Part shown: piece by piece, positions 13,134 through 32,129 of the stretch
Layout: every line of letters begins with the position of its first letter
Position numbering within the stretch: position 1 is the first letter of the stretch
Source: Candidatus Nanopelagicus hibericus
Lineage (GTDB): Bacteria; Actinomycetota; Actinomycetes; Nanopelagicales; Nanopelagicaceae
Length of the DNA stretch: 64,000 nt
Reading direction: 5' to 3'
NCBI RefSeq assembly: GCF_002288005.1
Contig: NZ_CP016771.1
Coordinates: forward strand, 496,001 to 560,000
The notes under the pieces: model-generated
What the model was told of the DNA's origin: nothing
The model's input: the letters and a program-made list of their open reading frames with translations, nothing else
The model's database searches: none
Made by a program: the position numbers and the translations under genes

Positions 13134-13139
13134 AGATTA
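13134..13139 (-). promoter_or_regulatory. Putative leaderless -10 box of the ctaE-qcrCAB operon
   Basis: On the minus strand TAATCT ends 5 nt before the ctaE ATG, the shortest spacing of the set seen in this window. The intervening bases are all C, so no ribosome binding site exists. Confidence 0.4.
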
Positions 13140-13267
13140 TTCCGCTAAATCGCGGTTAATGCCGCATCTAAGTATGGGGGAGCAGCCCTACTATTTGGTG
13201 AAACTGATCACCCAGGAAGGTGTCGAAGGCAGATACCGGATGAAAAACTCATTTGCATCCCCATCGC

Positions 13268-13273
13268 TAGGAT
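13268..13273 (+). promoter_or_regulatory. Putative leaderless -10 box of the receiver-like gene and trpD
   Basis: TAGGAT ends 7 nt before the ATG at 13281, with no Shine-Dalgarno sequence between. Confidence 0.5.
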
Positions 13274-13280
13274 TACCACC

Positions 13281-13682
13281 ATGCAAAGGTTAGTTATAGC
13301 CCTTTACTCCGATGATTCATCGGTTCGACAAACGGTCATTGCCGCCCTGGGAAAACAATTAGATCCCGCACTTTCCGTTCATGAGATTAAAGAGTTTGCC
13401 ACCGCAGATGCACTTCGACTTTATGTAGATAATAAAAAGCAGGTAGACCTGTTTATATTAGATGGCGAAGCGGTCCCAGAGGGTGGCATGGGAGTTGGTC
13501 GGCAATTAAAGGATGAGGTTTTCAACTGCCCACCGGTTTTGTTAATCACCGGCCGAGAGCAAGACAAATGGTTGGCAACTTGGTCAAAAGCTGAAGCGGT
13601 TGTTACCCACCCAATTGATCCCTTTACCATTGCAGGCAAGTGTGCTCAGCTGTTGAAAAGCTCCGCTGCGCTCGCAAATTAA
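13281..13682 (+). CDS. Atypical response-regulator receiver-like protein
   Basis: A 133-residue stand-alone receiver-fold protein with no output domain. The fold is suggested by alternating strands and helices and by the segment 'VDLFILDGEAVPEGGMGVGRQLKDE', where the aspartate of LDGEA sits at the place of the phospho-acceptor. The acidic pocket is 'YSDDSS' near residue 10 and the following strand ends in 'LLITGREQDKW'. It matches a conserved actinobacterial family that lies between ctaE and trpD. A full-length switch lysine is not obvious, so phosphorylation is unproven. trpD follows after 13 bases. Its partner is unknown. Confidence 0.75.
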   Translation: MQRLVIALYSDDSSVRQTVIAALGKQLDPALSVHEIKEFATADALRLYVDNKKQVDLFILDGEAVPEGGMGVGRQLKDEVFNCPPVLLITGREQDKWLATWSKAEAVVTHPIDPFTIAGKCAQLLKSSAALAN

Positions 13683-13695
13683 TTAAGTAGTAATA

Positions 13696-17590: not shown

Positions 17591-18940
17591 ATGATTGATC
17601 GCACAAGGCTGGCCACCTTACGCAAAATAGAGGATGAAAGGTTTATTACCTCTCATCCAAAAAGCGGTGAGTTGTTTGAAAAAGCGAAGGAATCAATGCC
17701 AGGTGGCGTGCCCATGTCCTGGATGTCAAAGTGGCCAGGTGCTTATCCAATATTTGTTGAAGAGGCTAAAGGTGCTGGGTTTGTTGATGTAGATGGCAAT
17801 ACCTATATAGATTTCTGTTTGGGCGACACTGGGTCAATGACTGGACACTCACCAGAAGCCACCATCACTGCAATTAGGGAGCAGGTGGGAAGAGGGTTGT
17901 CGGTGATGCTCCCAAGTAAGGACGCAGCAATTGTTTCTGCTGAACTTGCCACTCGTTTTAATTTACCACTTTGGCAGTTTACGGTTTCAGCCACTGATGC
18001 AAATCGTCATGTAATTCGATACTCAAGATTGATTACTGGTAAATCAAAGATAATTATTATCGACAGGTGTTATCACGGAAGTGTGGATGAAACTTTTGCA
18101 ACTTTAGACAAAAAGGGAAAAACGGTAGCCCGAGAGGGAAATATTGGGGCTCCAGTTGCACTGGATCAAACCACTCGAGTTGTGGCATTTAATGATTTAA
18201 GTGCAATGAAAAAGGCATTGGAAAAAGATGATGTGGCGGCTATTTTAATGGAACCGGCAATGACCAACGTTGGAATAGTTTTGCCACAGGATGGATATTT
18301 AAAAGGGGTCGAAAAATTAGCTAATCAATATGGCGCGATGTTAATAGTTGATGAAACACACACAATTTCAGTTGGCCCGGGAGGAATGACCGCTGAACTT
18401 GGCCTTGAACCAGATTTTTTGACAATTGGTAAAGCGATTGGAGGCGGATTTCCAACTGGTGCCTTTGGCATGAAGGCGAGTATTGCTACCGCAATAAGCA
18501 AACTAGTTGAACTCGAGGTGATTGATACTGGTGGAATTGGTGGAACTTTGGCCGCCAACGCGCTATCCCTAGCTGCCATGAAGGCAACGTTAAGTAAAGT
18601 TTTAACTAAAGAAAATTTTGAAAGGATGATCAAACTTGGAAACCGATGGGCAGATGGTGTTGAAAAAACAATTAATAAATATCAACTTGGGTGGACCGTT
18701 AATCGCCTTGGTGCAAGGGCTGAATACATGTTTGCCGCCTCCGCGCCAATAACTGGCAGGCAGGCAGCTGACAGCGGAGATTTTGAATTGGAGCAATTTA
18801 TTCACTTAAGAATGCTTAATGATGGTTTTCTAATCACACCATTTCACAATATGGCGTTAATTTCACCGGACACCACAATCGCAGATGTCGATTCGCATAC
18901 AAATGCGTTTGAAAAAATGTGTGGTGATTTAGTTGGCTAA
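17591..18940 (+). CDS. Class III PLP-dependent aminotransferase (GSA/beta-amino-acid transaminase-like)
   Basis: A 449-residue fold-type I aminotransferase. The PLP lysine is Lys281 in 'LTIGKAIGGGFPTGAFG', the cofactor aspartate is in 'MLIVDETHT' and the substrate-side motif 'CYHGSVDE' is present. The N-terminal 'SMPGGVPMSWM' resembles glutamate-1-semialdehyde aminomutase and beta-phenylalanine transaminases more than ornithine transaminases. It heads a three-gene unit with a hydrolase and an acetyltransferase. Next to a likely lysine-type catabolic cluster it could transaminate an amino acid of that pathway, but the substrate cannot be read from sequence. Confidence 0.85.
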   Translation: MIDRTRLATLRKIEDERFITSHPKSGELFEKAKESMPGGVPMSWMSKWPGAYPIFVEEAKGAGFVDVDGNTYIDFCLGDTGSMTGHSPEATITAIREQVGRGLSVMLPSKDAAIVSAELATRFNLPLWQFTVSATDANRHVIRYSRLITGKSKIIIIDRCYHGSVDETFATLDKKGKTVAREGNIGAPVALDQTTRVVAFNDLSAMKKALEKDDVAAILMEPAMTNVGIVLPQDGYLKGVEKLANQYGAMLIVDETHTISVGPGGMTAELGLEPDFLTIGKAIGGGFPTGAFGMKASIATAISKLVELEVIDTGGIGGTLAANALSLAAMKATLSKVLTKENFERMIKLGNRWADGVEKTINKYQLGWTVNRLGARAEYMFAASAPITGRQAADSGDFELEQFIHLRMLNDGFLITPFHNMALISPDTTIADVDSHTNAFEKMCGDLVG

Positions 18941-19802
18941 CACAACCTTGAAACTCAAGGATGGCAGAGCCCTTGATTACATAAGCAATACTGTTAAAAG
19001 CGATAAAGCAATTCTGTTTCATCACGGGACACCTGGAGATTGCACTGCATGGAGTTCTTGGGTTGAAGGGATAAATGAAGTCAAAGCAATAGCGGCTAGT
19101 CGTCCAGGCTATGGCCATAGTGATAGAAGGCGCGGGCGAAATGTGGCAGCAGATATCGATGATCAATCTGAATTACTAGATCATTTAGGAATTAAGAAAT
19201 TTGTCTCAATTGGGTGGTCAGGTGGCGGACCGCATGCTCTAAACATGACACGGGAATCTAGAAATATGGGTGCGATAACTCTTGCAGGTGTAGGTGAGTG
19301 GGGAAATGAAGATTTAGATTTTCTCAATGGCATGGGACCGGAAAATCACGACGAGTTTGGCGCCGCTTTAGCTGGTGAGAAAAGTATTGAAGAGTGGATG
19401 ATTGAAAATGCACATGATTTAAAAACTGTTACCGGTGCAGCATTAATAAGTGCATTGGGCGGATTAATTGGAGAGGCTGATAAAAAAGCCTTAACACATG
19501 AGGTAGCTGATGAAGAGGCGGCTGTGTTTAGAAGAGCCTTATCGGTAAGTTATTACGGTTGGTCAGATGATGATTTAGCCTTTGTTCAATCATTTGGATT
19601 TAAATTAAGCGAAATTAACAAACCAACTTTGATTTGGCAGGGTGATGATGATTTTATGGTGCCAAGAGAACATAGCAATTGGCTAGCAAAACATATACCT
19701 GGCGCTAAGCTTAATTTTGTACCTGGCCATGGGCACATTTCACTTGTTCAAAATTATCGACCTGAAATTATCAAGCAAGCATTGAACTTGCTCAATTCTT
19801 AA
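18933..19802 (+). CDS. Alpha/beta hydrolase
   Basis: A 289-residue alpha/beta hydrolase. The nucleophile elbow is 'GWSGGG' with Ser96, the oxyanion region is 'HHGTPGD' near residue 30, and the catalytic histidine is His268 in 'PGHGHIS'. The acid is likely one of the aspartates in 'QGDDDFMV'. The start is TTG 18933, giving an 8-base overlap with the preceding aminotransferase; no better ATG precedes the first strand. The acetyltransferase that follows overlaps by one base, so the three genes appear co-translated. The substrate is unknown. Confidence 0.85.
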   Translation: MANTTLKLKDGRALDYISNTVKSDKAILFHHGTPGDCTAWSSWVEGINEVKAIAASRPGYGHSDRRRGRNVAADIDDQSELLDHLGIKKFVSIGWSGGGPHALNMTRESRNMGAITLAGVGEWGNEDLDFLNGMGPENHDEFGAALAGEKSIEEWMIENAHDLKTVTGAALISALGGLIGEADKKALTHEVADEEAAVFRRALSVSYYGWSDDDLAFVQSFGFKLSEINKPTLIWQGDDDFMVPREHSNWLAKHIPGAKLNFVPGHGHISLVQNYRPEIIKQALNLLNS

Positions 19803-20329
19803 TGCAACACCAAATAAAACTCATTCCAGTATCGCTCGCAAAAGAGTATGCCGACCAGCCTTTGGACTGGAGTCTAAAATTATGGGGAGAGGGTAAATCA
19901 GAGTTCTCCGCTGACGATTGGCGAAATTTCTACAAAAACGCCATGAATTCTGATTATAGTAAATTCAATCCCGATGGCTCTGATCAAGAGTTGTTGTTTA
20001 TGGCAATTCGCACCAATGATGGAATCGAAGAGGTAGTGGCATCAATAGCAATATGCGATTTTGATGATATTGAGGAGTATCGACAGTTTAAACCTTGGAT
20101 TGCAGCTTTTATTGTTCGTGAAGATTTAAGAGGCACGGGTGTCGGTAGCACGGTCTTAGAATTAATGGAGAAAAGAATTCTTGCTTACGGAGTTAAACAC
20201 ATTTACCTGTGGACTGAAGGCGAGAAGAATTTTTATGGAAAACGCGGGTACCTGTTAATTGATCAGCTTCATAAACCGGGCAGAGTCATAGATTTGATGC
20301 AAAAAGATTTAGGAAAACTACTTATCTAA
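19802..20329 (+). CDS. GNAT family N-acetyltransferase
   Basis: A 175-residue acetyltransferase. The acetyl-CoA pyrophosphate loop is seen in 'VREDLRGTGVGSTVLELMEKR' (about residues 102-122), and 'FYGKRGYLL' near 143 is the usual late GNAT strand. The ATG overlaps the hydrolase stop by one base. The 3' end overlaps the convergent acyl-CoA dehydrogenase by 8 bases. The acceptor substrate is unknown; clustering with an aminotransferase and a hydrolase hints at an amine or amino acid. Confidence 0.82.
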   Translation: MQHQIKLIPVSLAKEYADQPLDWSLKLWGEGKSEFSADDWRNFYKNAMNSDYSKFNPDGSDQELLFMAIRTNDGIEEVVASIAICDFDDIEEYRQFKPWIAAFIVREDLRGTGVGSTVLELMEKRILAYGVKHIYLWTEGEKNFYGKRGYLLIDQLHKPGRVIDLMQKDLGKLLI

Positions 20330-21506
20330 AAGCTGCAATACCGGTTAATGCTTGCCCTAATACCAGCATATGAATCTCATGAGTTCCTTCATAGGTAAGC
20401 ACTGTTTCAAGGTTACTCATGTGTCTAAACACTGAGTATTCAGAGGTGATTCCTGCACCGCCAAGAATTGATCGAGCACTTCTTGCAATTTCTAGTGCAG
20501 CGTTAACATTATGAAACTTACCCATGCTGATTTGTTCAGGTTGTATTTTGTCTGAATCCTTTAAATCTGCCAGGTGATAGGCAAGAAGCATAGAGGTGGT
20601 GATTTTTGTCGCCATATCTGCAAATTTTGCTTGAGTTAGTTGATGCTTTGAAATCGGACCATCAAATTGCTCGCGGGTAGTGGCATAGGCGAGAGAAACC
20701 TCAAAACAATCACGAGCCGCACCAACTGTGCCAAAAATAATTCCATATCTCGCCTCGGCCAAACATAAAAGTGGCGCTCTTAAACTAGTTGCCTCTGGCA
20801 AACGATAAGAATCCGGAACGCGCATATCGTTGAATACCAGTTCTGATGTTACTGAGGCTCTAAGTGAGAGCTTATGTTTAATTGGATTTATAACTATTCC
20901 TGCTGTTTTAGTTGGAACACAGAAGCCGCGAATACCTTCATCAGTTTGTGCCCAAATAATGGCTACATCTGCAACGCTGCCATTAGTAATCCACATTTTT
21001 GAACCATTAATTATCCAGTCAGAGCCATCCTTCTTTGCAAAGGTTGTCATTCCTGAAGGATTTGAACCGTGATCTGCCTCTGTTAAGCCAAAGCATCCAA
21101 CCGCCTCACCTTTTGCCATTTTTGGTAGCCACTCTTGCTTTTGGGATTCACTTCCAAATTTATAAATCGCAAACATTGCAAGTGAACCTTGTACAGAAAC
21201 TAAAGATCTAAGTCCAGAATCAACCGCTTCCAATTCCAGGCAAGCGAGTCCATAGGACATCGCATCTGTACCTGCGCAGCCATAATTTTTAAGGTGCATA
21301 CCAAGAACTCCAATACCGCCTAGTGCTTTAGCTAAGTCACGGGCAGGAAGTTGTCCCTCTTCATACCAGGCTGCGATATTTGGTTTTAACTCTTTCGCGG
21401 CAAAATCTCTCACAACTGTTTGAATCGCTTTTTGTTCCTCAGTTAGTCGCGATTCAACCTGCATTAATACGAGTGGATGAATTGGAGAAGCGGCTGGTTT
21501 GCTCAT
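20322..21506 (-). CDS. gcdH: Glutaryl-CoA dehydrogenase-like acyl-CoA dehydrogenase
   Basis: A 394-residue FAD enzyme that in this subfamily oxidises and decarboxylates glutaryl-CoA to crotonyl-CoA. The catalytic base is Glu373 in 'TYEGTHEIH'. The glutarate-binding region 'ELEAVDSGLRSLVSVQ' preserves the arginine and serine known from human GCDH, and 'CFGLTEADHGSNPS' is the FAD-side motif. As I recall the human sequence, similarity runs end to end. ATG 21506 is chosen because TAGACT ends exactly 6 nt upstream; a TTG at 21512 would sit inside that spacer. The neighbours (FAD oxidase, ALDH, CoA-transferase) fit lysine-type catabolism. Confidence 0.88.
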   Translation of the reverse strand: MSKPAASPIHPLVLMQVESRLTEEQKAIQTVVRDFAAKELKPNIAAWYEEGQLPARDLAKALGGIGVLGMHLKNYGCAGTDAMSYGLACLELEAVDSGLRSLVSVQGSLAMFAIYKFGSESQKQEWLPKMAKGEAVGCFGLTEADHGSNPSGMTTFAKKDGSDWIINGSKMWITNGSVADVAIIWAQTDEGIRGFCVPTKTAGIVINPIKHKLSLRASVTSELVFNDMRVPDSYRLPEATSLRAPLLCLAEARYGIIFGTVGAARDCFEVSLAYATTREQFDGPISKHQLTQAKFADMATKITTSMLLAYHLADLKDSDKIQPEQISMGKFHNVNAALEIARSARSILGGAGITSEYSVFRHMSNLETVLTYEGTHEIHMLVLGQALTGIAAFR

Positions 21507-21512
21507 GTTCAA

Positions 21513-21518
21513 AGTCTA
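21513..21518 (-). promoter_or_regulatory. Putative leaderless -10 box of the glutaryl-CoA dehydrogenase gene
   Basis: On the minus strand TAGACT, then TTGAAC, then ATG. The ThDP-enzyme gene at 24301 has the same TTGAACATG start context. Confidence 0.5.
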
Positions 21519-21583
21519 CCGAGCGCATTTCTCAAGTTGAAACTTTTTACCGTAATAACTATCTTTTTGGTGATAAATGTCAT

Positions 21584-22747
21584 TTAAACAATGTTGTACT
21601 CGGGCCTCAATTGACCGGAGGTGAGGAATCGATCTGCACTAAGTTGATCTATTTTAACAAACGGTTGCTTGCCTAGATAAAGATCTCGCAGAATCTCACC
21701 TATCGCAGGTCCTTGCAAGAAGCCATGACCGCTAAAACCTGTGGCATAGAAAAATCTAGAAACTTTTTTATACTCACCTAGTATCGCATTGTGATCTGGT
21801 GTTACCTCATAAAGTCCGGCCCAACCTTTACCAATTCCGACATTCATAAGTCTTGGCGCCCTCGTACTAGCAATCGCGCCAAGTTTTTCTAAAAATTGTG
21901 GATCCTTCTTTAGATCAAAGCTTGGCTGGGTTGTTTTGTCAGAGAATCCCATCAGTAAGCCTTTACCCTCGCGGTGCCAATACAGTGAAGAGGAGTAGTC
22001 AATTGTCATTGGCATCTCCTTTGGTAAATCCGAGAAAGAATCATCTAAAGGCTCTGTAATTACTAATTCACGTTTGTAAGGTGTTACTGGCAGATCTAAG
22101 CCCACCATCGATGCAAGTTTTGGGGACCAGACACCAGCACAATTTATTACTGCACTTGTTTTAATTTCGCCCAGGGATGTACTCACTGAAGTTATCTCAC
22201 CTCCGTGGGTATGGATTCCAGTTACTTCAACATTTGTAATCACATCTGCCCCCAACTTTCTTGCTCCGCTTGCGTAGCCAAGTACTACGGATTCGGGTGT
22301 GCAGTGACCATCATTTGGCGTGAATGACGCAGCTAGAAGGTCAGAGGTACTTAGTAGCGGAGAAAGTTTGCCTGCTTCATTCGGTGTAAGCATCCTTGAT
22401 GCAACATTAAATTGTTTATGAATCTTGGTAGATTTTTCAAAAAGATCAACATCTTTTTGAGTTGTAAGTGCAAACAAATATCCCGGTCGATGTAGATCGA
22501 TTTCATACCCTGGTCTATTTTTAAAATCTGCAAACAGCTCTAAAGATCTTGCTCCTAAAGCGACATTAAACTCATCTGAGAAATTTGCCCTCACGCCACC
22601 TGCTGCTTTGGAGGTAGAGCCACTTGCTAAATCATTTTTTTCACAAAGAGCTACTCGAACGCCAGCTTCGGCTAAATGAAATGCGGCCGATGTGCCCATC
22701 ACGCCGCCACCAATAATGACTACATCAACTTGGGCAGGTAAGGACAT
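21584..22747 (-). CDS. FAD-dependent amino-acid/sarcosine oxidase-family oxidoreductase (DAO fold)
   Basis: A 387-residue flavoprotein of the DadA/sarcosine oxidase family. The Rossmann motif 'VVIIGGGVMGTSAAFHLAEAG' begins at residue 9, followed by the E of 'LCEKNDLASGST'. The C-terminal FAD motif 'YATGFSGHGFLQGPAIGEIL' is clear. The family oxidises secondary or D-amino acids such as sarcosine, D-alanine, or pipecolate (PIPOX). It lies 2 bases after the ALDH gene and is likely co-transcribed. Given the neighbouring ALDH7-like enzyme and glutaryl-CoA dehydrogenase, pipecolate is an attractive but unproven substrate. Confidence 0.85.
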   Translation of the reverse strand: MSLPAQVDVVIIGGGVMGTSAAFHLAEAGVRVALCEKNDLASGSTSKAAGGVRANFSDEFNVALGARSLELFADFKNRPGYEIDLHRPGYLFALTTQKDVDLFEKSTKIHKQFNVASRMLTPNEAGKLSPLLSTSDLLAASFTPNDGHCTPESVVLGYASGARKLGADVITNVEVTGIHTHGGEITSVSTSLGEIKTSAVINCAGVWSPKLASMVGLDLPVTPYKRELVITEPLDDSFSDLPKEMPMTIDYSSSLYWHREGKGLLMGFSDKTTQPSFDLKKDPQFLEKLGAIASTRAPRLMNVGIGKGWAGLYEVTPDHNAILGEYKKVSRFFYATGFSGHGFLQGPAIGEILRDLYLGKQPFVKIDQLSADRFLTSGQLRPEYNIV

Positions 22748-22749
22748 TT

Positions 22750-24246
22750 TTAAATTTTAAGAACAAAATCTGGGTCATGCTTGATCTCAATCAGATCCAT
22801 CTGTGCTTTCTGTAATTTGTTTGACCAGTCCCAGTTCATTGATTGCCATCTTGTGAATTGATCTAAGACCCAAATTCCGCTTTGTCGTGAGCCATTACCG
22901 CTCAAACCATTACCACCAAATGGAAGGTGTGCCTCTGCCCCAGAGGTTGAGTTATTGATCGAGACCATACCGGCGGAAATACCTTCTCTAAAGCGCCAAA
23001 CATTTTGAGGATCATTGGTATAGATAGCTGAGGAAAGTCCATATCCGTGGCCATTTGCAAGATCTATCGCTTCATCCAATGTTGAGAATTTTCCAACAGT
23101 AACTAGCGGACCAAAAGTTTCAGTTGCATAAAGCTCATCGTTTTTTGTTATTCCAGCAACAATAACTGGATGGGCAAACACACCTTTATCTGGATCGCCA
23201 ACAAAACCTTTTCGAGGATTGCTTGCGGTAATACGACCAGTTGAGGTGGATCCCAATACTTTGTGATGGCTTTGAATCATCTTCAAGTGAGCTAAGTGGT
23301 TATCTAGATATTTTTGGCTAATCATTGGACCAAACAAAACATCCTTAAATGGATCACCAACTGCTGCGTTTTCCACTAATGAAGCAAATTTTGAGAGCAC
23401 ATTGTCGTAAATCGATTCATGAATCCAAAGTGTGCCCAGTGAAGTACAGCGCTGACCGGCAGTACCAAAGCCAGCAAATAATGCACCATCTAACGCAAGA
23501 TCAATATTTGCATCTGGCATTACAACCATCGGATTTTTTCCACCAAGCTCAAGACATGCACTTTGAATGTACTCGCCAGCTTTAGCACCAATTTTTCTAC
23601 CAACTGCCGTTGATCCAGTAAAGCCAACCTTATTGATTACTCCTTCTTTCAATCCAGAATCCAAAGCCGCAAATGTTTGAGTGCCATCTGCCACCACAGT
23701 GATTAAAACATCTTGCGGAACTCCACCAGCATGAAAGATTGATGTTAAGGCATTTGCCACAGCTGGTGTGAACTCTGATGGTTTCCACACCACGGTATTA
23801 CCGGCCAAAAGCGCCGGCACGATATACCAAGAAGGAACAGCGGTTGGAAAATTTCCAGCGGTTATAACAAAAACATTTCCAACTGGCATTCTGAAAGTGA
23901 AAAGGTTCTTATTTTGCATTTCACTTGGCACAGTCTGGCCATAGAGGCGCCGACCTTCACCTAAAAAGAAGTCGCAGGTATCAACAACCTCCTGCACCTC
24001 ACCTAATGCTTCGGTGTAAACCTTGCCCATTTCTTTGGTGATTAATTTGGCCAGTTCCTCTTTATTTTTTTCAACTAACCTTCCAACATTTGCAATGATT
24101 CGACCACGAGTTGGTGCTGGCAGTTTCGCCCAACCCTTTTGCGCTAATTTTGCCTTACGCAAAACTGTCAAGATTTCAGCAGCTGTTGCTTCAGGAACAG
24201 TTGCAATCACTTCAGATGAATTTGTGGGATTGGTTGATTCAAACAT
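22750..24246 (-). CDS. Aldehyde dehydrogenase, ALDH7-like (alpha-aminoadipic semialdehyde dehydrogenase candidate)
   Basis: A 498-residue NAD-dependent aldehyde dehydrogenase. The general base is Glu233 in 'LELGGKNP' and the nucleophile is Cys267 in 'GTAGQRCTS'. The blocks 'ALFAGFGTAGQRCT..IHESIYDNV' and 'SGAEAHLPFGG' parallel human ALDH7A1 (antiquitin), which oxidises alpha-aminoadipic semialdehyde. It heads a leftward pair with the FAD oxidase. No TANNNT box was found before its ATG. The assignment to aminoadipate semialdehyde rests on family resemblance plus neighbours; glutarate semialdehyde is an alternative. Confidence 0.85.
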   Translation of the reverse strand: MFESTNPTNSSEVIATVPEATAAEILTVLRKAKLAQKGWAKLPAPTRGRIIANVGRLVEKNKEELAKLITKEMGKVYTEALGEVQEVVDTCDFFLGEGRRLYGQTVPSEMQNKNLFTFRMPVGNVFVITAGNFPTAVPSWYIVPALLAGNTVVWKPSEFTPAVANALTSIFHAGGVPQDVLITVVADGTQTFAALDSGLKEGVINKVGFTGSTAVGRKIGAKAGEYIQSACLELGGKNPMVVMPDANIDLALDGALFAGFGTAGQRCTSLGTLWIHESIYDNVLSKFASLVENAAVGDPFKDVLFGPMISQKYLDNHLAHLKMIQSHHKVLGSTSTGRITASNPRKGFVGDPDKGVFAHPVIVAGITKNDELYATETFGPLVTVGKFSTLDEAIDLANGHGYGLSSAIYTNDPQNVWRFREGISAGMVSINNSTSGAEAHLPFGGNGLSGNGSRQSGIWVLDQFTRWQSMNWDWSNKLQKAQMDLIEIKHDPDFVLKI

Positions 24247-24288
24247 GAGTGTATTCTCTACCAGATAAGCAAAATTGGAAAATGCCGA

Positions 24289-24294
24289 TATTGT
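24289..24294 (+). promoter_or_regulatory. Putative leaderless -10 box of the ThDP-enzyme gene
   Basis: TATTGT ends 6 nt before ATG 24301. This supports the ATG over the TTG two codons upstream, which would lie within the spacer. Confidence 0.45.
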
Positions 24295-24300
24295 TTGAAC

Positions 24301-25962
24301 ATGGAAGGCTCTGTGCGCACCGTAGCAGCGGTCATTTTAGATTTACTTGCTAGAAAGGGCGTCACTAAGGCATTTGGAATTCCTGGAGTTCATAATCTAG
24401 GTTTTTGGAACGCATTATCCAAGGACAGACCAGAGATCATAAGTGTCAGGCATGAACAGAGCTGCGTCTATGCAGCCGATGGTCTAGCAAGAGCTACTGG
24501 AACGTTATCTGTTGCAATAACTACTACCGGACCTGGTGCGGCAAATACATTAGGTGCATTTGGTGAAGCAGCAACCTCTGGATCACAATTGTTGTTGATT
24601 TCATCTGAGGCTCCAATAAAAATTCGATCAAAAGAGGGCACAAGGGGAATTTTGCATGAGATGCGGGATCAAAGTGCAATCTTTGCACCACTTGCTAAAC
24701 GAGTGTCCATCAGTGGCAAAGAATTAGTGTTGGCGAAAAATGCAACTACAGCAATTGAAGCAATCTCAACAGTCGTGGATTTTATGGAATTCCTAGCGCA
24801 AGCACCAACCGGTGCAGGGTATATCGGCATTCCATCAGATATTTTGAATCAGGAATTTACTGGGCAAATTCCGACACCAAGTAAGAGTTGTTTAGATTTT
24901 ATCAATCAAGAAAAAAATCTTGCAATAAATCAAGAATTGATAAAGAAAATGTTGGAGGGTGTTAGCAAAATTGGAATATGGGCAGGTGGTGGGGCACAAG
25001 GTGTAAGTAATGAAATTACAAAATTATCCGATCACCTAAATGCACCAATTTTTACCTCCTTTGCAGGAAGAGGAGTGGGAGGCTCAAGCAAAAACTACTT
25101 CACCTTACCGATTCACGAAAAGGAGGCGGAAGTAGTTTTGACCGAATGTGAAGCCTTACTAGTTTTTGGATCCCAACTTGATGGAATGAATACTAAAAAT
25201 TGGAGTATAAATTTTCCAAAAAAGATTATAATTTTTGATGCATATCCAGATGTTGCGCTCCGAAACATAAAAGCTGATTTAGTAGTACGAACTGCAAATT
25301 TAGCAAAGGCTTGTGAAGCTTTAACATCGTTGCCCGCTCGAGATCAGTGGATTGATGTTTCAAATATCACTGCCGAAGGCAGGCAACGAATTGCTCAAAG
25401 TGAAAAAGGTCGAGCAGGAATGGCCTTGGTAACTGCGATTGAGAAAAGTTGGCCAAGTGAAAATTACATCGTATGTGATATGGCAATTTCTGGTTATTGG
25501 ACTGGTGTTTATCTTCAAAGTAAAAGAGTACGGCAAATTGCATACCCAGTTGGTTGGGGAACTTTAGGTTTTGCACTCCCTGCAAGTTTAGGACCGGCTG
25601 CGGCAGGAATCTCAACATTAGTTGTATGCGGAGATGGTGGAATTGCATTTGCATTAGGTGAACTAGCAACAGTGTCACAGGAAAAATTGCCATTAACAAT
25701 TCTGCTACATGATGATGGTGGATATGGGATGCTTCGATTTGATCAAAAAGTAATGAATCATCCAGAAAGAGGCGTAAATTTGTTTAATCCTAATTGGCAA
25801 ATACTCGCCCAATCATTTGGAATTGAGTTTATTGAAAGTAATCTAAAAACCCTTGCTGATGCTTTACGTAAACGATCCACAAGTAAGACTCCAGGAATAG
25901 TTTTAATTAAAGATGAAATTTACCCACCAAAAAGCAGTAGTCCAAGATGGAACGAGAATTAA
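24301..25962 (+). CDS. Thiamine diphosphate-dependent enzyme of the acetolactate synthase/decarboxylase family
   Basis: A 553-residue ThDP enzyme with the Pyr, central and PP domains in order. The cofactor-activating glutamate is Glu52 in 'RHEQSCVYAADGLARATG'. The PP-domain motif starts at 'GDGG' (444-447), but the usual closing Asn-Asn reads Asp-Asp in 'LLHDDGGYG' (about 471). The chain is full length. Acetolactate synthase itself is unlikely because of the catabolic setting. A role as 2-oxoadipate decarboxylase would fill a gap between aminoadipate and glutarate in the surrounding cluster; that is inference. It ends exactly where the convergent small gene ends. Confidence 0.82.
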   Translation: MEGSVRTVAAVILDLLARKGVTKAFGIPGVHNLGFWNALSKDRPEIISVRHEQSCVYAADGLARATGTLSVAITTTGPGAANTLGAFGEAATSGSQLLLISSEAPIKIRSKEGTRGILHEMRDQSAIFAPLAKRVSISGKELVLAKNATTAIEAISTVVDFMEFLAQAPTGAGYIGIPSDILNQEFTGQIPTPSKSCLDFINQEKNLAINQELIKKMLEGVSKIGIWAGGGAQGVSNEITKLSDHLNAPIFTSFAGRGVGGSSKNYFTLPIHEKEAEVVLTECEALLVFGSQLDGMNTKNWSINFPKKIIIFDAYPDVALRNIKADLVVRTANLAKACEALTSLPARDQWIDVSNITAEGRQRIAQSEKGRAGMALVTAIEKSWPSENYIVCDMAISGYWTGVYLQSKRVRQIAYPVGWGTLGFALPASLGPAAAGISTLVVCGDGGIAFALGELATVSQEKLPLTILLHDDGGYGMLRFDQKVMNHPERGVNLFNPNWQILAQSFGIEFIESNLKTLADALRKRSTSKTPGIVLIKDEIYPPKSSSPRWNEN

Positions 25963-26178
25963 TTAGTCGGTAAGTCCTGCAGAAATTATTAGGTAATAGA
26001 TAGTAAAAATTACTGAAGCCCAAAGAAATCCTGTCCACCAGCTCATGCTTAGTTTCAACTTATAAGTATCCCAATTTACTTTTGCAAGGTTCTTATCCGC
26101 ACGTACTTTGTTGCGATAAGAAATGATCATGTAGGCGGAAACTAGAATTCCCCAAAAGAACATAAAGCCGGATCTCAT
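25963..26178 (-). CDS. Small two-helix membrane protein, unknown function
   Basis: A 71-residue protein I do not recognise. Two hydrophobic stretches (about residues 4-20 and 47-67) are joined by a basic loop (NKVRADKNLAKVNWDTYKLK). I take it as real because TAAACT lies exactly 6 nt before its ATG, matching the leaderless pattern of its neighbours, and its stop abuts the stop of the ThDP gene without overlap. It interrupts the catabolic cluster on the opposite strand. It might be an accessory to a transporter, but nothing in the sequence shows this. Confidence 0.6.
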   Translation of the reverse strand: MRSGFMFFWGILVSAYMIISYRNKVRADKNLAKVNWDTYKLKLSMSWWTGFLWASVIFTIYYLIISAGLTD

Positions 26179-26184
26179 ATCATC

Positions 26185-26190
26185 AGTTTA
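26185..26190 (-). promoter_or_regulatory. Putative leaderless -10 box of the small membrane-protein gene
   Basis: On the minus strand TAAACT ends 6 nt before the ATG at 26178. Confidence 0.42.
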
Positions 26191-26244
26191 ACCCAGGTTT
26201 GTAAGTGTGACCATTTGCATCTCGTGATTAAGTCAATTCCTATC

Positions 26245-26250
26245 TACACT
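26245..26250 (+). promoter_or_regulatory. Putative leaderless -10 box of the ornithine-cyclodeaminase homologue
   Basis: TACACT ends 7 nt before the ATG at 26258. The spacer holds AAGGG, which is too close for typical use as a ribosome binding site but not impossible. Confidence 0.4.
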
Positions 26251-26257
26251 AAGGGTC

Positions 26258-27181
26258 ATGGCACATCTACAAACCCCTTTTGTTACTGCCGAAGAGATCA
26301 ATGCTTTGTGCAGCTATGAAAAAATTATAGATAATCAACGCCAAGTATTCGTAAACTTATATTCAAACAAAGCAATGATGGGGCCTAGAGCTATCTTGTC
26401 TCAAAATGATAATGCGCAATTTTCCTACATTGCTCGAGCTTCAGAGAATGGACCTACCATTGTTAAATTTGGAACTGTAGTACCAGGTAACTCTGCTCGA
26501 GATATTCCAGTAGTTCAAACTACGGTTGCAATACTTGATGCAACTTCGGGCTCGCTTAAGTTATTTCTAGATGGTGAGGCAGTGACAAAATGGCGGACAG
26601 TCTGCGCAAGTATGGCTGCGGCTATCGCATTGTCGAATCCAATTAAAAAGATTGCTGTAATCGGAGTGGGTCATCAGGGGAAAGCACATATTGAGGCAGC
26701 AAAAAGTATTTTCAACCCTGAAAAAATCATTGGTATTTCAAAAAGTACAAAGCCAGCGAACTTTGGATCTGATGTTGAAATCAGTAATGATCTAAATAGA
26801 GTAAGTGAATGTGATTTGATTTTTGTTTGCACCAATGCTTCAGAGCCAGTGATTAAATCTTTGTTAAATCCGGGTTCCACCTGTATTTCCATCGGTTCAT
26901 TTTCGCCAATGCGATCAGAGGTCTCAGTAGAAGCACTTTCCAAGGCTGATAAGGTTTTTGGTGATGATGCTAAGACAATTTCTGAACAATCTGGTTCAGT
27001 GGTTAGTACACTTGCTAAATCTGATCGAAACTGGAAACAAGCCCAATCTATTGGTGGAGTTTATGCCGGAAAAATTAAAGGTAGGGAAAATGAAAAGGAA
27101 GTTATCTACTACTTCTCAGTTGGTTTGGGAGTTCAAGATGCAGCACTTGCTGATTTTATCCTTGCGACTGGGAAATTCTAA
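26258..27181 (+). CDS. Ornithine cyclodeaminase/mu-crystallin family protein (ketimine reductase candidate)
   Basis: A 307-residue NAD(P)-binding protein of the OCD/mu-crystallin family. The Rossmann loop 'KIAVIGVGHQGKAHIEAAKSIF' begins near residue 131. The substrate-side motif 'FLDGEAVTKWRTVCASMAAAIAL' near 105-127 has the conserved lysine/arginine seen across the family. Members include ornithine cyclodeaminase, alanine dehydrogenase and ketimine reductases such as CRYM that reduce piperideine-2-carboxylate to pipecolate. The last reaction would connect to the PIPOX-like oxidase nearby. It precedes the large fusion gene by 19 bases in the same direction. Confidence 0.83.
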   Translation: MAHLQTPFVTAEEINALCSYEKIIDNQRQVFVNLYSNKAMMGPRAILSQNDNAQFSYIARASENGPTIVKFGTVVPGNSARDIPVVQTTVAILDATSGSLKLFLDGEAVTKWRTVCASMAAAIALSNPIKKIAVIGVGHQGKAHIEAAKSIFNPEKIIGISKSTKPANFGSDVEISNDLNRVSECDLIFVCTNASEPVIKSLLNPGSTCISIGSFSPMRSEVSVEALSKADKVFGDDAKTISEQSGSVVSTLAKSDRNWKQAQSIGGVYAGKIKGRENEKEVIYYFSVGLGVQDAALADFILATGKF

Positions 27182-27200
27182 AATGAAAATAGGGAATTAA

Positions 27201-30143
27201 GTGGATATAAAAGATGCCAGTTCTCTATTAGCCAAGAATTGGGGAGTTAAGGGTGAATTATCACCACTTCCAAGTGAGCGAGATATAAATTTTAAGATTG
27301 GTGGTAAAAAAGCGTATGTTTTAAAGATTTATCCTAAGGTTGATGCAGACTTAAAGATTAGATTAAATCTGCAAAACAAAGTACTTATCTTTTTACAGGA
27401 TAGCTCCATCAAAGTGTCGCCAGCAGTAATTCCAACTAAAAAGAAGAAATTACTGGTCACCCCGAGTAAAAATACTGCCGCGCGGCTGCTTACCTACCAC
27501 CAAGGCAAAACCTGGGGGAGTAGTTCTGAACATAGTGGTGAACAGATTGAAGAACTTGGCCGGCTGATTGCCACAGTAGATAAAAACTTATCAAAAATTA
27601 GCATAACCAAAGCGGAGCGGAAATCACTGAATGCTAATTTTATTTGGAATATGTTGCAGGCAGAAAAGCTCCTCACCTGGAGTTCTAAAATCACCGATAA
27701 TCAAAGTCGGGTTGTTGTCGAGAAAACTTTAAATAACTTTGCGAAAAAAGTGCTCCCCAAGCTGAAGAAATTACCCATGCAGGTAATTCATAATGATGGT
27801 AACGATTACAACATTATTGAAGATGGTGAAAATCTCTCATTAATTGATTTTGGCGACATGATTTATGCCCCAAAGGTTGTCGGCGCTGCGGTCGCTGCCG
27901 CTTATGTAGGGTTGAAATCTGATGATCCAGGCAAGCAGATCGCGCAATTTGTTCGCGGTTATCACAGCGTAAATCCTTTATCTAATGATGAGCTTTTACT
28001 ATTCATTGAATTGGTAAAGGTCCGGCTGGCTGCCAGTGTGGCAAATGCAGCACTGCAGCGAGGTGATAACCCTGATAATGAATACCTGTCCATTAGCCAA
28101 AGTGATGCTCCAAGAACCCTGATAGCGTTGGATAAATCCGACAGTAATTTTCTATTGTACAGACTAAGAAATGCGATCGGGCTTGAAGCAAATCCTAATG
28201 CGAAAGCAGTTCGTGATTATTTATTAACAAAAACTGCTACAAATATATTGAGCAAGCCGTTTGACCAATTAAAGATTGTTTATATGAATTGGTCATTTGA
28301 TAACAAGGATATACCTCGCTCTACCCAGGCTTTGGAGGAGTTGAAATCTAAATCAGGCGCAGATGTGGTTATTGGTTATTACTGTGAAAATCGCAATGTT
28401 TATCAAGGTGAGGCATTTAATCCGGCAGCTACCAATGCCAGAACTTTTCACCTAGGTGTTGATATTGGCATGCCAGCAGGAACCGAGGTGTTTGCGCCCT
28501 TAGATGGTGTAATTGAATTATTTAATAACAACTCAACCAATTTGGATTATGGTCCAGTTGTTATTTTGCGACATAAAACTGGCAGTGGAGTTCCGTTTTG
28601 GACTCTTTATGGCCACCTTTCAATTGATTCCATGCCTAGTTGGCAGATTGGTAAAGAGATTAAAGCTGGTCAATTGATTGGTCGCATGGGTACGGAGGAG
28701 GAGAATGTGGGTTGGCCACCTCATACTCACTTTCAGTTGCTCACAGATCTGTGCGGGATGGGTATTGATATTCATGGGGTAGCACCTAAAGATGAGATTC
28801 CTTTATGGCGCGGAATCTCATTAAATCCAAATCTAATTCTGGGAATCCAATCTGGCACCGACGCACATGCCCGGATCTCTCCTGCAAGTATTAGAAGTGA
28901 GCGCAGAGTGGTGGTTTCACAAAATCTTTCACTTAACTTTAAAAAACCAATAAATATTATTAGTGGCTCTGGTGCTTATCTATTTGATGAGCAGGGAAAA
29001 GGCTATTTAGATCTGGTGAACAATGTTGCCCATGTAGGTCATGGAAATCCTAGAGTTGTAGATGCGGCCGCCACACAAATGGCGACCCTAAATACAAATA
29101 CCAGATATCTACACCAATCCATTATCGAGTATGGAAAGGCGCTAACCAGCAGCCTGCCAGATCCACTTTCTGTAGTTTTCTTTGTAAATAGTGGTAGTGA
29201 GGCAAATGATCTAGCAATCAGATTGGCTAGGGCTGCCACAAAATCAAAGGGAGTTGTCGCACTTAAAGATGGTTATCACGGACATACCCAGGCGGTTGTG
29301 GAGATTTCACCATATAAGTTTCTAGGAAAAGGTGGGGCGGGAGCGCCATCACATGTGGCGGTGGCGGAGCTACCTGATTTATTTCGAGGTGAATTTACTG
29401 GCAAGAATGCCACTGAAAAGTACTTAAATGATCTCAAACAAAGTATTAAATCTCTTAAACAGCCGTTGTCAGCATTTTTTTCTGAAGCGATTGTCAGTAC
29501 TGCAGGTCAAGTGGTTTTACCTCCAGGTTATTTAGCCAAAGCATTTGAAATAGTTAGAGCAAATGGTGGAGTCTGTGTGAGTGATGAGGTGCAGATTGGT
29601 TTAGGCAGAGTCGGCGATAAGTTCTGGGGCTTTGAATTGCATAATGTAGTGCCAGATATTGTCACTATGGGTAAACCACTTGGAAATGGCCATCCATTGG
29701 CAGCTGTCGTCACCACTCCACAGATTGCTAATGCATTTAACAACGGAATGGAGTACTTCAACACCTTTGGTGGTAATCCCGTGAGTGCGGTAATTGGACA
29801 GGCGGTGCTTGAGGTTGTCTATGATCAAAAGTTGCAATTAAATGCAAAAAACATCGGTAAGTATTTAACTGAAGGAGTTAAATCTCTGGCTAAAGATCAC
29901 CCAATAATTGCTGATGTGCGGGGCAGTGGCTTATTTATCGGTGTGGAGATGATGGTTGATGAGAAAACTCCAGCAACTAAAGAGGTGGCAGAGCTGATGG
30001 AGTACGCACTCTCCAAAGGAGTTTTACTCTCCTGTGATGGTCCAGACAATAATGTGCTAAAGATAAAGCCACCATTAATCATTACCAATAGTGATGTAGA
30101 TCTACTGTTAAATGTGTTTAGTGATTGGTTGGGCAGCAGGTGA
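27201..30143 (+). CDS. Fusion: hydroxylysine-kinase-like APH domain + M23 metallopeptidase domain + class III phospholyase/aminotransferase
   Basis: A 980-residue three-domain protein starting at GTG 27201. Residues about 1-330 form an APH-fold kinase with 'LPSERDINF', 'ANFIWN', the catalytic motif 'HNDGNDYN' (from about 197) and 'DFGDM' (about 216), closely resembling human hydroxylysine kinase. Residues about 400-530 are a LytM/M23 domain with intact zinc ligands, His417 and Asp421 in HLGVD and His508-x-His510. Residues about 560-980 are a class III PLP enzyme with Lys825 in '[11 protein letters not shown]', resembling phosphoethanolamine and 5-phosphohydroxylysine phospho-lyases. Kinase plus lyase would turn 5-hydroxylysine into aminoadipate semialdehyde. 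The M23 domain has no signal peptide and its role is unclear. Confidence 0.85.
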
Positions 30144-31237
30144 AGCCACCATTAGCTGGGATTAAGATCGCAGATTTTTCTAGAGTTTTAGCAGGTCCAT
30201 ATGCAACTATGTTGTTGGCAGATTTAGGCGCACAGGTTATTAAAGTGGAGCGTCCAGGTGTAGGAGATGACACCCGAAATTGGGGACCACCCTTTGATGC
30301 GGCAGGTAATGCAACCTATTTTCTATCGGTAAATCGCAACAAAGAGGGTTTGGAGCTGGACCTATCTAAGGCAACTGATCAACAGGCAGCGTTGGAGTTA
30401 ATTGCAAGCGCTGATGTTGTGGTGGAAAACTTTGGACCAGGTGGAATGGAAAGATACAACCTTGGTTACAGCAAACTAATAAGTAACAACCCAAAGTTAA
30501 TTTACTGCTCAATCTCAGGTTTTGGCACATCAGATAAAGCTGCCACTCTTCCTGGCTATGACCTTTTATTGCAGGGGATGAGTGGTTTGATGAGTATTAC
30601 TGGTAACGATGAAAAAAATCCAACAAAGGTTGGTGTTGCCCTAGTTGATGTTATTACAGGATTACATGCAGTGGTTGGGATCTTGGCTGCCCTTCGGGCA
30701 AGAGATGAACAAGGTGTTGGTCAAAAGGTTGAGTTAAATCTGCTCTCCTCCACATTATCAGCCTTAGTAAACCAAGCATCCGCCTATATTTCAGGGGGAG
30801 TAATACCAAAAGCTTTGGGGAATGCGCATCCATCAATCGCGCCATACCAATCATATGACGCGAAGGATAAGAAGTTTATTGTGGCAGTTGGTAATGATCA
30901 GCAATTTGTTAAATTTGCTGGGGTGGTTGCACCAGAGCTTTTAAGTGATGGCAGATTTACTACCAATCAATTACGGGTTGAAAACTTGTTGGCATTAAAT
31001 GAGAAGTTATCTGCGGTCTTTTCCCAGAAAAATGCTCATCAATGGATTGCCTCTTTATCCGCTGTAAAGATTCCAACTGGTGAAATAAATGATGTTAAAG
31101 AGGCTTTTGATCTTGCCGCATCCCTTGGCCTTTCACCAATAGTTGATGTTGATGGTGTTAAATCTGTAGCAAATCCAATTACATTTAGTAAAACACCAGT
31201 TGAGTATCGTTCTGCGCCACCAAATATAAGGAAATAA
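30140..31237 (+). CDS. CaiB/BaiF family CoA-transferase, glutarate CoA-transferase (SUGCT)-like
   Basis: A 365-residue class III CoA-transferase. The start is GTG 30140, giving a 4-base GTGA overlap with the fusion gene; a TTG at 30125 is in frame but adds residues absent from the family. The N-terminus 'GIKIADFSRVLAGPYATMLLADLGAQVIKVERPG' and the catalytic aspartate Asp141 in 'PGYDLLLQGMSGLM' are diagnostic. 'NAHPSIAPYQ' and 'GNDQQF' resemble human succinyl-CoA:glutarate CoA-transferase. Activating glutarate would supply the glutaryl-CoA dehydrogenase encoded about 9 kb upstream. Other dicarboxylates are possible. Confidence 0.87.
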   Translation: MKPPLAGIKIADFSRVLAGPYATMLLADLGAQVIKVERPGVGDDTRNWGPPFDAAGNATYFLSVNRNKEGLELDLSKATDQQAALELIASADVVVENFGPGGMERYNLGYSKLISNNPKLIYCSISGFGTSDKAATLPGYDLLLQGMSGLMSITGNDEKNPTKVGVALVDVITGLHAVVGILAALRARDEQGVGQKVELNLLSSTLSALVNQASAYISGGVIPKALGNAHPSIAPYQSYDAKDKKFIVAVGNDQQFVKFAGVVAPELLSDGRFTTNQLRVENLLALNEKLSAVFSQKNAHQWIASLSAVKIPTGEINDVKEAFDLAASLGLSPIVDVDGVKSVANPITFSKTPVEYRSAPPNIRK

Positions 31238-31243
31238 ATAGGC

Positions 31244-31249
31244 TAGCCT
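31244..31249 (+). promoter_or_regulatory. Putative leaderless -10 box of the EamA transporter gene
   Basis: TAGCCT ends 7 nt before the ATG at 31257, in the 19-base gap after the CoA-transferase gene. Confidence 0.42.
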
Positions 31250-31256
31250 TACCTAA

Positions 31257-32129
31257 ATGAAGGCTGAGATCTCAACTAAATTTACAATCCTCGCCCTGCT
31301 TTGGGGAGTCTCATTTCTATTACTACTTAGAGTGGTGGAAGCCTTTGATTGGGCAGCTGCAATCTCAGTCCGAGCCTTTATTGCCAGTGGCAGTGTTTTG
31401 CTACTGGCGGCAATAATTAGAAAGAAATTAGATTTTTCAATTGGGGTGAAACATTTCGCAATCCTTGGGTTAACCTCTGTGACATTTCAATTAATTGGTT
31501 TATCTCTGGCTGTACCAAGAATTGGAACGGCATTAACTGCGATCCTAGTTGGCGCAATTCCATTATTTTCCTCAGTTATTGGTCGATTAATGAAGATTGA
31601 AAACATTGATCGATCAGGCTTTATAGGTTTATTGCTGGGCTTTGTTGGAATCATTTTTCTGGTGGGTTTTCCAAGCGGTGAGTTTGGTGATCAATTCTTC
31701 TTGGGCTTTTTTGTATGCTTATTTGGTTGTATGAGCGCAGCCTTTGGTAGTAATTACTCAAAGTTGAAAATGTCATCAGTTGGTAATTGGGAGCAGGTAA
31801 TTGGCGCCTTCTTCTTTGGTGGGCTCTTTACCTCACCGATTTTGCTGTTTGTGCCAATAAAGGCAGGGCTAGTGCCAATGGATTGGTTGTATATGGTAAG
31901 CCTGGCAGTTTTTTGTAGCGCATTTTGCTATGTAATCTACTTCTCGTTGGTTTCAAAGATTGGTGCAACTAGATCTATCTCAGTTGAGTTTTTGGTAACG
32001 GTTGTGGCTGTGTTAATCGGGGCCTTCTATCTAAATGAAGCGATTACTGTAATTCAGCTATTTGGGGCAGCACTGGTAATTCTTGGCTCCATTTTGATAC
32101 TAGATTTACTCTCAATTTCTAAAAAATAG
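31257..32129 (+). CDS. EamA/DMT-superfamily transporter
   Basis: A 290-residue inner-membrane protein with about ten hydrophobic segments arranged as two five-helix EamA repeats (first ending near residue 135, second starting near 150). The family exports or imports metabolites and amino acids by secondary transport. It directly follows the CoA-transferase, so it may serve the same catabolic cluster, but it also has its own TAGCCT box. The substrate cannot be inferred. Confidence 0.88.
   Translation: MKAEISTKFTILALLWGVSFLLLLRVVEAFDWAAAISVRAFIASGSVLLLAAIIRKKLDFSIGVKHFAILGLTSVTFQLIGLSLAVPRIGTALTAILVGAIPLFSSVIGRLMKIENIDRSGFIGLLLGFVGIIFLVGFPSGEFGDQFFLGFFVCLFGCMSAAFGSNYSKLKMSSVGNWEQVIGAFFFGGLFTSPILLFVPIKAGLVPMDWLYMVSLAVFCSAFCYVIYFSLVSKIGATRSISVEFLVTVVAVLIGAFYLNEAITVIQLFGAALVILGSILILDLLSISKK

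What the first reader, a model, noticed from the sequence alone, without database searches (positions are those of the whole stretch)
17591..31237. A compact gene island that mirrors the mammalian lysine/pipecolate/hydroxylysine route to glutaryl-CoA
Seen: homologues of glutaryl-CoA dehydrogenase (20322), a PIPOX-type FAD oxidase (21584), an ALDH7-like dehydrogenase (22750), a ThDP decarboxylase-family enzyme (24301), an OCD/mu-crystallin protein (26258), a hydroxylysine-kinase plus phospholyase fusion (27201) and a SUGCT-like CoA-transferase (30140), with a class III aminotransferase and a transporter at the edges. Known: in mammals CRYM, PIPOX, ALDH7A1, HYKK, PHYKPL, SUGCT and GCDH act in this route. 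Inferred: the bacterium takes up lysine-type compounds (perhaps hydroxylysine from collagen-like or peptide debris) and turns them into crotonyl-CoA. The step from aminoadipate to glutarate would use an aminotransferase and the ThDP enzyme. I do not know of this set being described as one bacterial cluster.
Basis: partly seen in the sequence, partly recalled or inferred. Interest (0 to 1): 0.78.

Follow-up and report, generated by a model that had tools for sequence, protein, structure and literature searches.

The report
Hydroxylysine/pipecolate breakdown island in lake bacteria
A streamlined lake actinobacterium carries a self-contained, strain-variable block of genes that most likely breaks down hydroxylysine and pipecolate, two unusual relatives of lysine, into ordinary carbon fuel, by a route laid out like the one in mammals but built partly from different enzymes.

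Summary
Window ~20322-32129 is a real unit of eight genes plus a missed 71-aa membrane ORF. It is present in 9 congeners and absent, together, from the rest of 24. In island-less G001, 52 bp stand in its place. The edge aminotransferase (17591) stays in G001, so it does not belong.

The glutaryl-CoA arm is well supported: glutaryl-CoA dehydrogenase (548 bits to M. smegmatis GCDH; active-site Arg and Tyr-Glu invariant), a SUGCT-like transferase and a fadB/thiolase sink. The aldehyde dehydrogenase is the actinobacterial aminoadipate-semialdehyde type. Its orthologues sit beside lysine 6-aminotransferase (LAT), or in a sister clade mostly beside this FAD oxidase. LAT and the ThDP enzyme never share a genome (0 seen, 4.2 expected). 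The kinase-M23-phospholyase fusion lies beside a curated P6C dehydrogenase in Latescibacterota and beside P6C dehydrogenase plus HglS in Nonomuraea. That points to hydroxylysine, not ethanolamine.

Corrections: the oxidase is nearer proline-dehydrogenase beta subunits than PIPOX; the OCD protein lacks the cyclodeaminase Asp; the ThDP step and aminoadipate deamination remain inferred. The cluster is a new variant of known lysine catabolism, not a new kind of system. No assay exists.

The parts
20322..21512 (-). Glutaryl-CoA dehydrogenase (glutaryl-CoA to crotonyl-CoA + CO2)
   Evidence: Best PDB 3sf6/3swo M. smegmatis GCDH 548/529 bits, human GCDH 353 bits; Arg102 and Tyr374-Glu375 100% conserved in 18 sequences
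21584..22747 (-). DAO-family FAD oxidoreductase, proposed pipecolate dehydrogenase giving P6C/aminoadipate semialdehyde
   Evidence: PF01266; best PDB 1y56_B (called sarcosine oxidase in the PDB; a proline dehydrogenase beta subunit by outside knowledge) 227 bits; sits next to the ALDH in several families that lack LAT
22750..24246 (-). Aminoadipate-semialdehyde / P6C dehydrogenase (family-7-like ALDH)
   Evidence: Best PDB Thermus ALDH 6fjx 460 bits, antiquitins 250-272; orthologues beside L-lysine 6-transaminase; Gly-Ala-Glu anchor loop invariant (PMC6127216)
24295..25962 (+). ThDP-dependent 2-oxoacid decarboxylase, proposed 2-oxoadipate to glutarate semialdehyde
   Evidence: PF02776/PF00205/PF02775; Glu54 and GDG motif invariant; linked to ALDH (and mostly DAO) across families; never with LAT
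25963..26178 (-). 71-aa predicted two-segment membrane protein, island-specific, no family
   Evidence: Conserved 61-97% in island copies, no hit in the G001 stretches held; no Pfam or NCBIfam match
26258..27181 (+). OCD/mu-crystallin family NAD(P) enzyme, ketimine reductase or aminoadipate dehydrogenase
   Evidence: PF02423; best PDB P2C reductase 82 bits, archaeal alanine dehydrogenase 76; cyclodeaminase Asp absent, replaced within invariant GSF
27201..30143 (+). Trifunctional APH-type kinase, M23 metallopeptidase-like domain and class III phospholyase: proposed hydroxylysine kinase/5-phosphohydroxylysine lyase
   Evidence: Pfam domains; PRK06148 1079 bits against cut-off 1128; kinase, M23 zinc and PLP residues conserved in 91 fusions; linked to P6C dehydrogenase in Latescibacterota and to HglS + P6C dehydrogenase in Nonomuraea
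30125..31237 (+). SUGCT-like class III CoA-transferase (glutarate to glutaryl-CoA)
   Evidence: NF052585 succinate-glutarate CoA-transferase top hit, 343 bits against cut-off 750; human SUGCT 272 bits; Asp175 invariant
31257..32129 (+). EamA/DMT-family transporter, island gene
   Evidence: PF00892; follows the CoA-transferase in congeners; no copy at the empty site of G001

Best explanation
A mobile-looking metabolic island of about 11.8 kb in a freshwater acI-type actinobacterium (1.22 Mb genome) that catabolises lysine derivatives converging on L-2-aminoadipate semialdehyde (AASA, cyclic form P6C). The fusion phosphorylates 5-hydroxylysine and eliminates phosphate and ammonia to give AASA. 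The DAO enzyme oxidises pipecolate to P6C. The ALDH makes 2-aminoadipate. Deamination (by the OCD-family enzyme or an aminotransferase elsewhere) gives 2-oxoadipate. The ThDP enzyme decarboxylates it to glutarate semialdehyde, which an ALDH oxidises to glutarate. The CoA-transferase makes glutaryl-CoA, GCDH makes crotonyl-CoA, and the fadB/thiolase genes elsewhere finish to acetyl-CoA. Shown by sequence and linkage: the unit, its all-or-none occurrence, GCDH, the AASA-dehydrogenase assignment, and linkage of the fusion to AASA metabolism in three settings. Inferred: pipecolate as the DAO substrate, 2-oxoadipate as the ThDP substrate, glutarate as the CoA-transferase substrate, the OCD role, and all catalysis.
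For: Joint presence/absence in the genus and a clean empty site. GCDH homology and catalytic residues. ALDH orthologues beside L-lysine 6-transaminase, over the curated cut-off, while the LAT-less sister clade has DAO and/or ThDP beside the ALDH in most members. LAT and ThDP co-occur 0 times (4.2 expected), LAT and fusion 0 (3.5 expected), fusion and ThDP 8 (0.77 expected) in 395 genomes. Fusion next to curated P6C dehydrogenase in three Latescibacterota and in one region with HglS (2-oxoadipate decarboxylase) and P6C dehydrogenase in Nonomuraea. The fusion tree puts Nonomuraea as sister to the other actinobacterial island-type fusions and Latescibacterota on the other side of the deepest split. 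fadB-like and thiolase genes are present.
Against: No assay. Outside Nanopelagicaceae, Latescibacterota and Nonomuraea, fusions are mostly not beside lysine genes; S. meliloti has it with amino-acid ABC transporter and SDR genes. The lyase domain's best solved relative is an ethanolamine-phosphate lyase (6tor), though PHYKPL has no structure to compare. The ThDP, DAO and CoA-transferase assignments lie below curated cut-offs. No enzyme was identified that turns free lysine into P2C or AASA. Glutarate-semialdehyde dehydrogenase is unassigned. Co-occurrence counts are not corrected for phylogeny.
Confidence: 0.75

Rival explanations
1. The island degrades pipecolate/lysine only, and the kinase-lyase fusion acts on another amino alcohol such as ethanolamine, riding along in the same block.
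For: Best solved relative of the lyase is ETNPPL; fusions elsewhere are usually not near lysine genes; the ALDH-DAO(-ThDP) group occurs without a fusion in several genomes.
Against: The fusion is part of the all-or-none unit and is linked to P6C dehydrogenase and HglS in other lineages; an ethanolamine product (acetaldehyde) does not fit the neighbours.
Confidence: 0.12
2. The ThDP enzyme decarboxylates 6-amino-2-oxohexanoate (from lysine or P2C) so that carbon reaches glutarate by the 5-aminovalerate route, not via 2-oxoadipate.
For: Second best family hit is 5-guanidino-2-oxopentanoate decarboxylase (PRK07524, 227 bits against cut-off 500), an enzyme of basic 2-oxoacids; an OCD-type ketimine reductase is nearby.
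Against: The ThDP gene is linked to the AASA dehydrogenase in several families; in Nonomuraea a known 2-oxoadipate enzyme (HglS) occupies the same pathway position; no aminovalerate aminotransferase in the island.
Confidence: 0.15
3. The OCD-family protein is the missing 2-aminoadipate dehydrogenase (like archaeal alanine dehydrogenase) instead of a ketimine reductase feeding pipecolate to the DAO enzyme.
For: Nearly equal similarity to alanine dehydrogenase (75.7 bits) and P2C reductase (82.5); in G033 OCD is kept in a block without DAO, where it could not feed a neighbouring pipecolate oxidase; it would close the only open step.
Against: Curated family hits include P2C/Pip2C reductases; the Asp of alanine dehydrogenase is not conserved; DAO may lie elsewhere in G033.
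Confidence: 0.35
4. A chance cluster of unrelated catabolic genes.
For: Several proteins belong to very large families.
Against: Unit-wise presence/absence, conserved order in the genus, rearranged recurrence in a second genus, and trans-lineage linkage.
Confidence: 0.03

Closest known systems
Mammalian lysine/pipecolate/hydroxylysine catabolism (HYKK, PHYKPL, PIPOX, ALDH7A1, SUGCT, GCDH; kinase and lyases in Veiga-da-Cunha et al. 2012, seen here only as a reference in PMC9283133)
   Same: Same inferred intermediates: phosphohydroxylysine or pipecolate to AASA, aminoadipate, glutarate, glutaryl-CoA, crotonyl-CoA.
   Different: Kinase and lyase fused with an M23 domain; non-PIPOX FAD enzyme; non-antiquitin ALDH; a ThDP decarboxylase plus CoA-transferase proposed in place of 2-oxoadipate dehydrogenase; encoded as one mobile-looking block.
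Actinobacterial LAT-PCD pathway (L-lysine 6-transaminase + P6C dehydrogenase)
   Same: Orthologous aldehyde dehydrogenase (56-64% identity) making aminoadipate.
   Different: LAT is absent; the entry enzymes are DAO and the kinase-lyase fusion; the ALDHs form two sister clades.
Nonomuraea LysR-HglS-P6CDH-fusion region (L189)
   Same: Sister-clade fusion with P6C dehydrogenase and a 2-oxoadipate decarboxylating enzyme.
   Different: Uses HglS (to 2-hydroxyglutarate) and antiquitin-type P6CDH, no GCDH nearby; also carries PTE and amidase genes.
Glutarate catabolism of Pseudomonas putida (GcdH arm; PMC6667623 listed, not read)
   Same: Glutaryl-CoA dehydrogenase arm (outside knowledge).
   Different: P. 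putida enters through aminovalerate or D-lysine/pipecolate routes without the kinase-lyase fusion (outside knowledge).

Membership tests
Glutaryl-CoA dehydrogenase (decarboxylating) | Closest to characterised or structurally assigned GCDHs among acyl-CoA dehydrogenases | tested here: met
   Top hits 3sf6, 3swo, 2eba and human GCDH; the next non-GCDH assigned group is at 233 bits
Glutaryl-CoA dehydrogenase (decarboxylating) | Catalytic Glu with preceding Tyr, and carboxylate-binding Arg | tested here: met
   Tyr374-Glu375 and Arg102 100% conserved; roles from outside knowledge of human GCDH
Hydroxylysine kinase / phosphohydroxylysine lyase | APH-type kinase and class III PLP lyase with intact catalytic residues | tested here: met
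   D199, N204, D216 and K825 100% conserved in 91 fusions
Hydroxylysine kinase / phosphohydroxylysine lyase | Genomic link to AASA metabolism | tested here: met
   Island; Latescibacterota P6CDH; Nonomuraea HglS + P6CDH
Hydroxylysine kinase / phosphohydroxylysine lyase | Activity on 5-hydroxylysine and not ethanolamine; grouping with PHYKPL against ETNPPL | not testable with these tools
   No assay; no PHYKPL sequence or structure among the tools
PRK06148 fusion (NF004799) | Score over curated cut-off | tested here: not met
   1078.9 against 1128 bits, full-length match: same architecture, divergent member
PIPOX / monomeric sarcosine oxidase | Best similarity to MSOX/PIPOX and covalent-flavin Cys | tested here: not met
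   TIGR01377 116 bits against cut-off 480; nearest 1y56_B at 228 bits, MSOX 85; conserved GWAGxY without a Cys at that motif (the Cys rule is outside knowledge)
Pipecolate oxidase AmaA (NF050086) | Curated cut-off | tested here: not met
   59 bits against 600
ALDH7 / P6C dehydrogenase (NF050084) | Curated cut-off | tested here: not met
   356 bits against 730, though its top NCBIfam hit
ALDH7 / P6C dehydrogenase | Family-7 anchor-loop Gly-Ala-Glu and catalytic Cys | tested here: met
   Gly436-Ala437-Glu438 and Cys267 100% in 59 sequences; rule from PMC6127216
SUGCT (NF052585) | Curated cut-off | tested here: not met
   343 against 750 bits, still the best-scoring family
Lysine/ornithine cyclodeaminase | Catalytic Asp in the G-x-D-x-P motif | tested here: not met
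   GSFSP in place of GADGP-type motif; role of Asp from outside knowledge
L-lysine 6-transaminase pathway | LAT gene in the genome | tested here: not met
   No TIGR03251 match in G000

The most novel reading that the evidence does not exclude
The island is a dedicated scavenging pathway for hydroxylysine from collagen- or silaffin-like peptides. The conserved M23 zinc-peptidase domain would release or trim hydroxylysine-containing peptides inside the same polypeptide that phosphorylates and lyses the amino acid. The ThDP enzyme would be a new, dedicated 2-oxoadipate decarboxylase giving a CoA-independent bypass of 2-oxoadipate dehydrogenase.
Probability: 0.2. Interest if true: 0.75.

Novelty: new variant of a known kind. 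Interest (0 to 1): 0.62.

Why it matters
[quoted passage not shown] In the two acI metabolic papers checked here by keyword, one never mentions lysine and the other mentions it only as an auxotrophy. If true, this island gives some of these bacteria a specific carbon and nitrogen source that separates strains. It also gives the widespread kinase-M23-lyase fusion a concrete substrate hypothesis that a simple assay can test, and it names candidates for three enzyme activities (pipecolate dehydrogenase, 2-oxoadipate decarboxylase, glutarate CoA-transferase) in actinobacteria.

Tried and rejected
Aminotransferase 17591, alpha/beta hydrolase and GNAT as pathway genes: rejected for the aminotransferase and GNAT, which persist without the island in G001; the alpha/beta hydrolase is missing beside some islands. 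TrpB-like gene 16178: absent from the syntenic G001 site, but no link to the pathway. Lysine cyclodeaminase for OCD: disfavoured by the missing Asp. Literature searches for bacterial hydroxylysine clusters, acI lysine use and ThDP 2-oxoadipate decarboxylase found nothing on this cluster; the 2012 kinase/lyase paper is not held. Neighbours of the fusion in Sinorhizobium, Thalassospira, Bacteroidota and Kineosporia gave no pathway. No structure prediction was run: it would not separate the substrate alternatives.
Full report
What was checked. The window lies in a one-contig, 99.9% complete genome of 1,223,088 bases. Its nearest named relative in the genome collection is single-cell genome SCGC AAA027-J17, which from outside knowledge belongs to the freshwater acI-A actinobacteria; an actinobacterial cytochrome oxidase subunit in the window agrees.

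The island is a unit. In 24 congeners, the fusion, ALDH, ThDP and acyl-CoA dehydrogenase genes are found in the same nine genomes and missing together from the rest; G016 has only the dehydrogenase, at a contig end. In congener G001 the flanking genes are syntenic (trpD, exonuclease, NAAT transporter, PRK07046 aminotransferase, GNAT | nitroreductase, fructose-bisphosphate aldolase), and 52 bp replace the whole block from the dehydrogenase to the EamA transporter. So the aminotransferase at 17591 does not belong, while the transporter does. The same block occurs with the same order in congeners, in G006 at a site without the usual flanking genes, and rearranged without the FAD oxidase in G033 and in one MAG (L133). 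A 71-aa two-segment membrane ORF on the minus strand between ThDP and OCD (25963-26178) is conserved in island copies and has no family.

The glutaryl-CoA end. The dehydrogenase matches M. smegmatis GCDH structures at 548 and 529 bits and human GCDH at 353; the next assigned non-GCDH group is at 233. The Arg and Tyr-Glu positions of GCDH are invariant. The CoA-transferase has succinate-glutarate CoA-transferase as best family, although below the curated cut-off, and human SUGCT among its solved relatives. The genome has a long fadB-like ORF next to a thiolase, so crotonyl-CoA has an outlet.

The aminoadipate semialdehyde step. The ALDH is closest to the Thermus ALDH (460 bits), well above antiquitins (250-272). 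The authors of that structure suggested a possible place in family 7, partly on a Gly-Ala-Glu anchor loop (PMC6127216), which is invariant here. Its function is better shown by context. In other actinobacteria the orthologue sits directly beside L-lysine 6-transaminase scored above the curated cut-off, and most of the 61 genomes with both genes show them adjacent by coordinates. The window's own genome lacks LAT. An ALDH tree splits into a LAT-linked clade and a clade whose members lie mostly beside the DAO enzyme and/or ThDP. Across 395 genomes LAT and ThDP never co-occur (4.2 expected), LAT and the fusion never co-occur (3.5 expected), and ThDP and the fusion co-occur 8 times (0.77 expected). 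These counts ignore phylogeny. The simplest reading is that DAO and the fusion are alternative suppliers of the same intermediate that LAT makes.

The kinase-lyase fusion. Domain order is APH kinase, M23 peptidase, class III PLP enzyme. Among 91 fusions the kinase (D199, N204, D216) and PLP (K825) residues are invariant, and the M23 ligands (H417, D421, H508, H510) are 98-100% conserved. Fusions are widespread in bacteria, mostly without lysine genes nearby. Two independent exceptions are telling. In three Latescibacterota a P6C dehydrogenase lies two genes away; the two scored are above the curated cut-off and the third is 92% identical. In Nonomuraea the same region holds HglS (2-oxoadipate dioxygenase/decarboxylase) and P6C dehydrogenase, both above cut-off, and the fusion. 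In the fusion tree Nonomuraea is sister to the other actinobacterial island-type fusions, and Latescibacterota fall across the deepest split. AASA is the expected product of a phosphohydroxylysine lyase, so hydroxylysine is favoured over ethanolamine. The best solved relative of the lyase domain is the ethanolamine-phosphate enzyme 6tor, but there is no PHYKPL structure for comparison, so sequence alone does not decide.

Weaker assignments. The FAD enzyme is nearest 1y56_B, labelled sarcosine oxidase in the PDB and known to me as a proline dehydrogenase beta subunit, at 228 bits; monomeric sarcosine oxidase is at 85 and AmaA pipecolate oxidase far below cut-off. Pipecolate is inferred from linkage and chemistry. 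The OCD protein resembles P2C reductase and alanine dehydrogenase about equally and lacks the cyclodeaminase Asp. It could be a ketimine reductase or the otherwise missing aminoadipate dehydrogenase; its retention in G033 without a neighbouring DAO gene leans toward the second. The ThDP enzyme has intact cofactor motifs; 2-oxoadipate is inferred because HglS occupies that pathway position in Nonomuraea and because aminoadipate must be shortened to reach the C5 CoA genes. Glutarate semialdehyde oxidation is unassigned.

Verdict. Free lysine as substrate is not shown. It is a new variant of known lysine-family catabolism, with testable enzyme candidates. The literature available here did not describe it, but that library lacks most subscription papers.

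Noticed in passing
window 28446-28743 (residues 416-514 of the fusion): A cytosolic M23 metallopeptidase-like domain with all zinc ligands conserved 98-100% sits between kinase and lyase in fusions from many phyla; its role is unexplained.
   Followed up: partly
window 25963-26178 (-): Missed 71-aa membrane ORF conserved with the island; L035, L041 and L042 carry an extra GNAT gene of 180-183 aa beside it.
   Followed up: partly
L148:13146-14129, also L150 and L157: A PhyH-family (Fe/2-oxoglutarate dioxygenase-like) gene lies between the fusion and P6C dehydrogenase in Latescibacterota; it might make or modify the hydroxylated substrate.
   Followed up: no
L189:7980-9101 and 12935-14419: PTE-family hydrolase and amidase genes flank the fusion in Nonomuraea, hinting at an amide or lactam precursor.
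   Followed up: no
L274:5758-11961 (S. meliloti plasmid pMl9): Fusion in a co-directional run with LacI regulator, amino-acid ABC transporter parts and an SDR, annotated only as class III aminotransferase.
   Followed up: no
L126, L127: Public MAGs titled Bifidobacterium breve carry acI-type island sequence; the organism labels look wrong.
   Followed up: no
window 16178-17554: TrpB-like gene present next to the aminotransferase in several congeners but absent from the syntenic G001 site.
   Followed up: no
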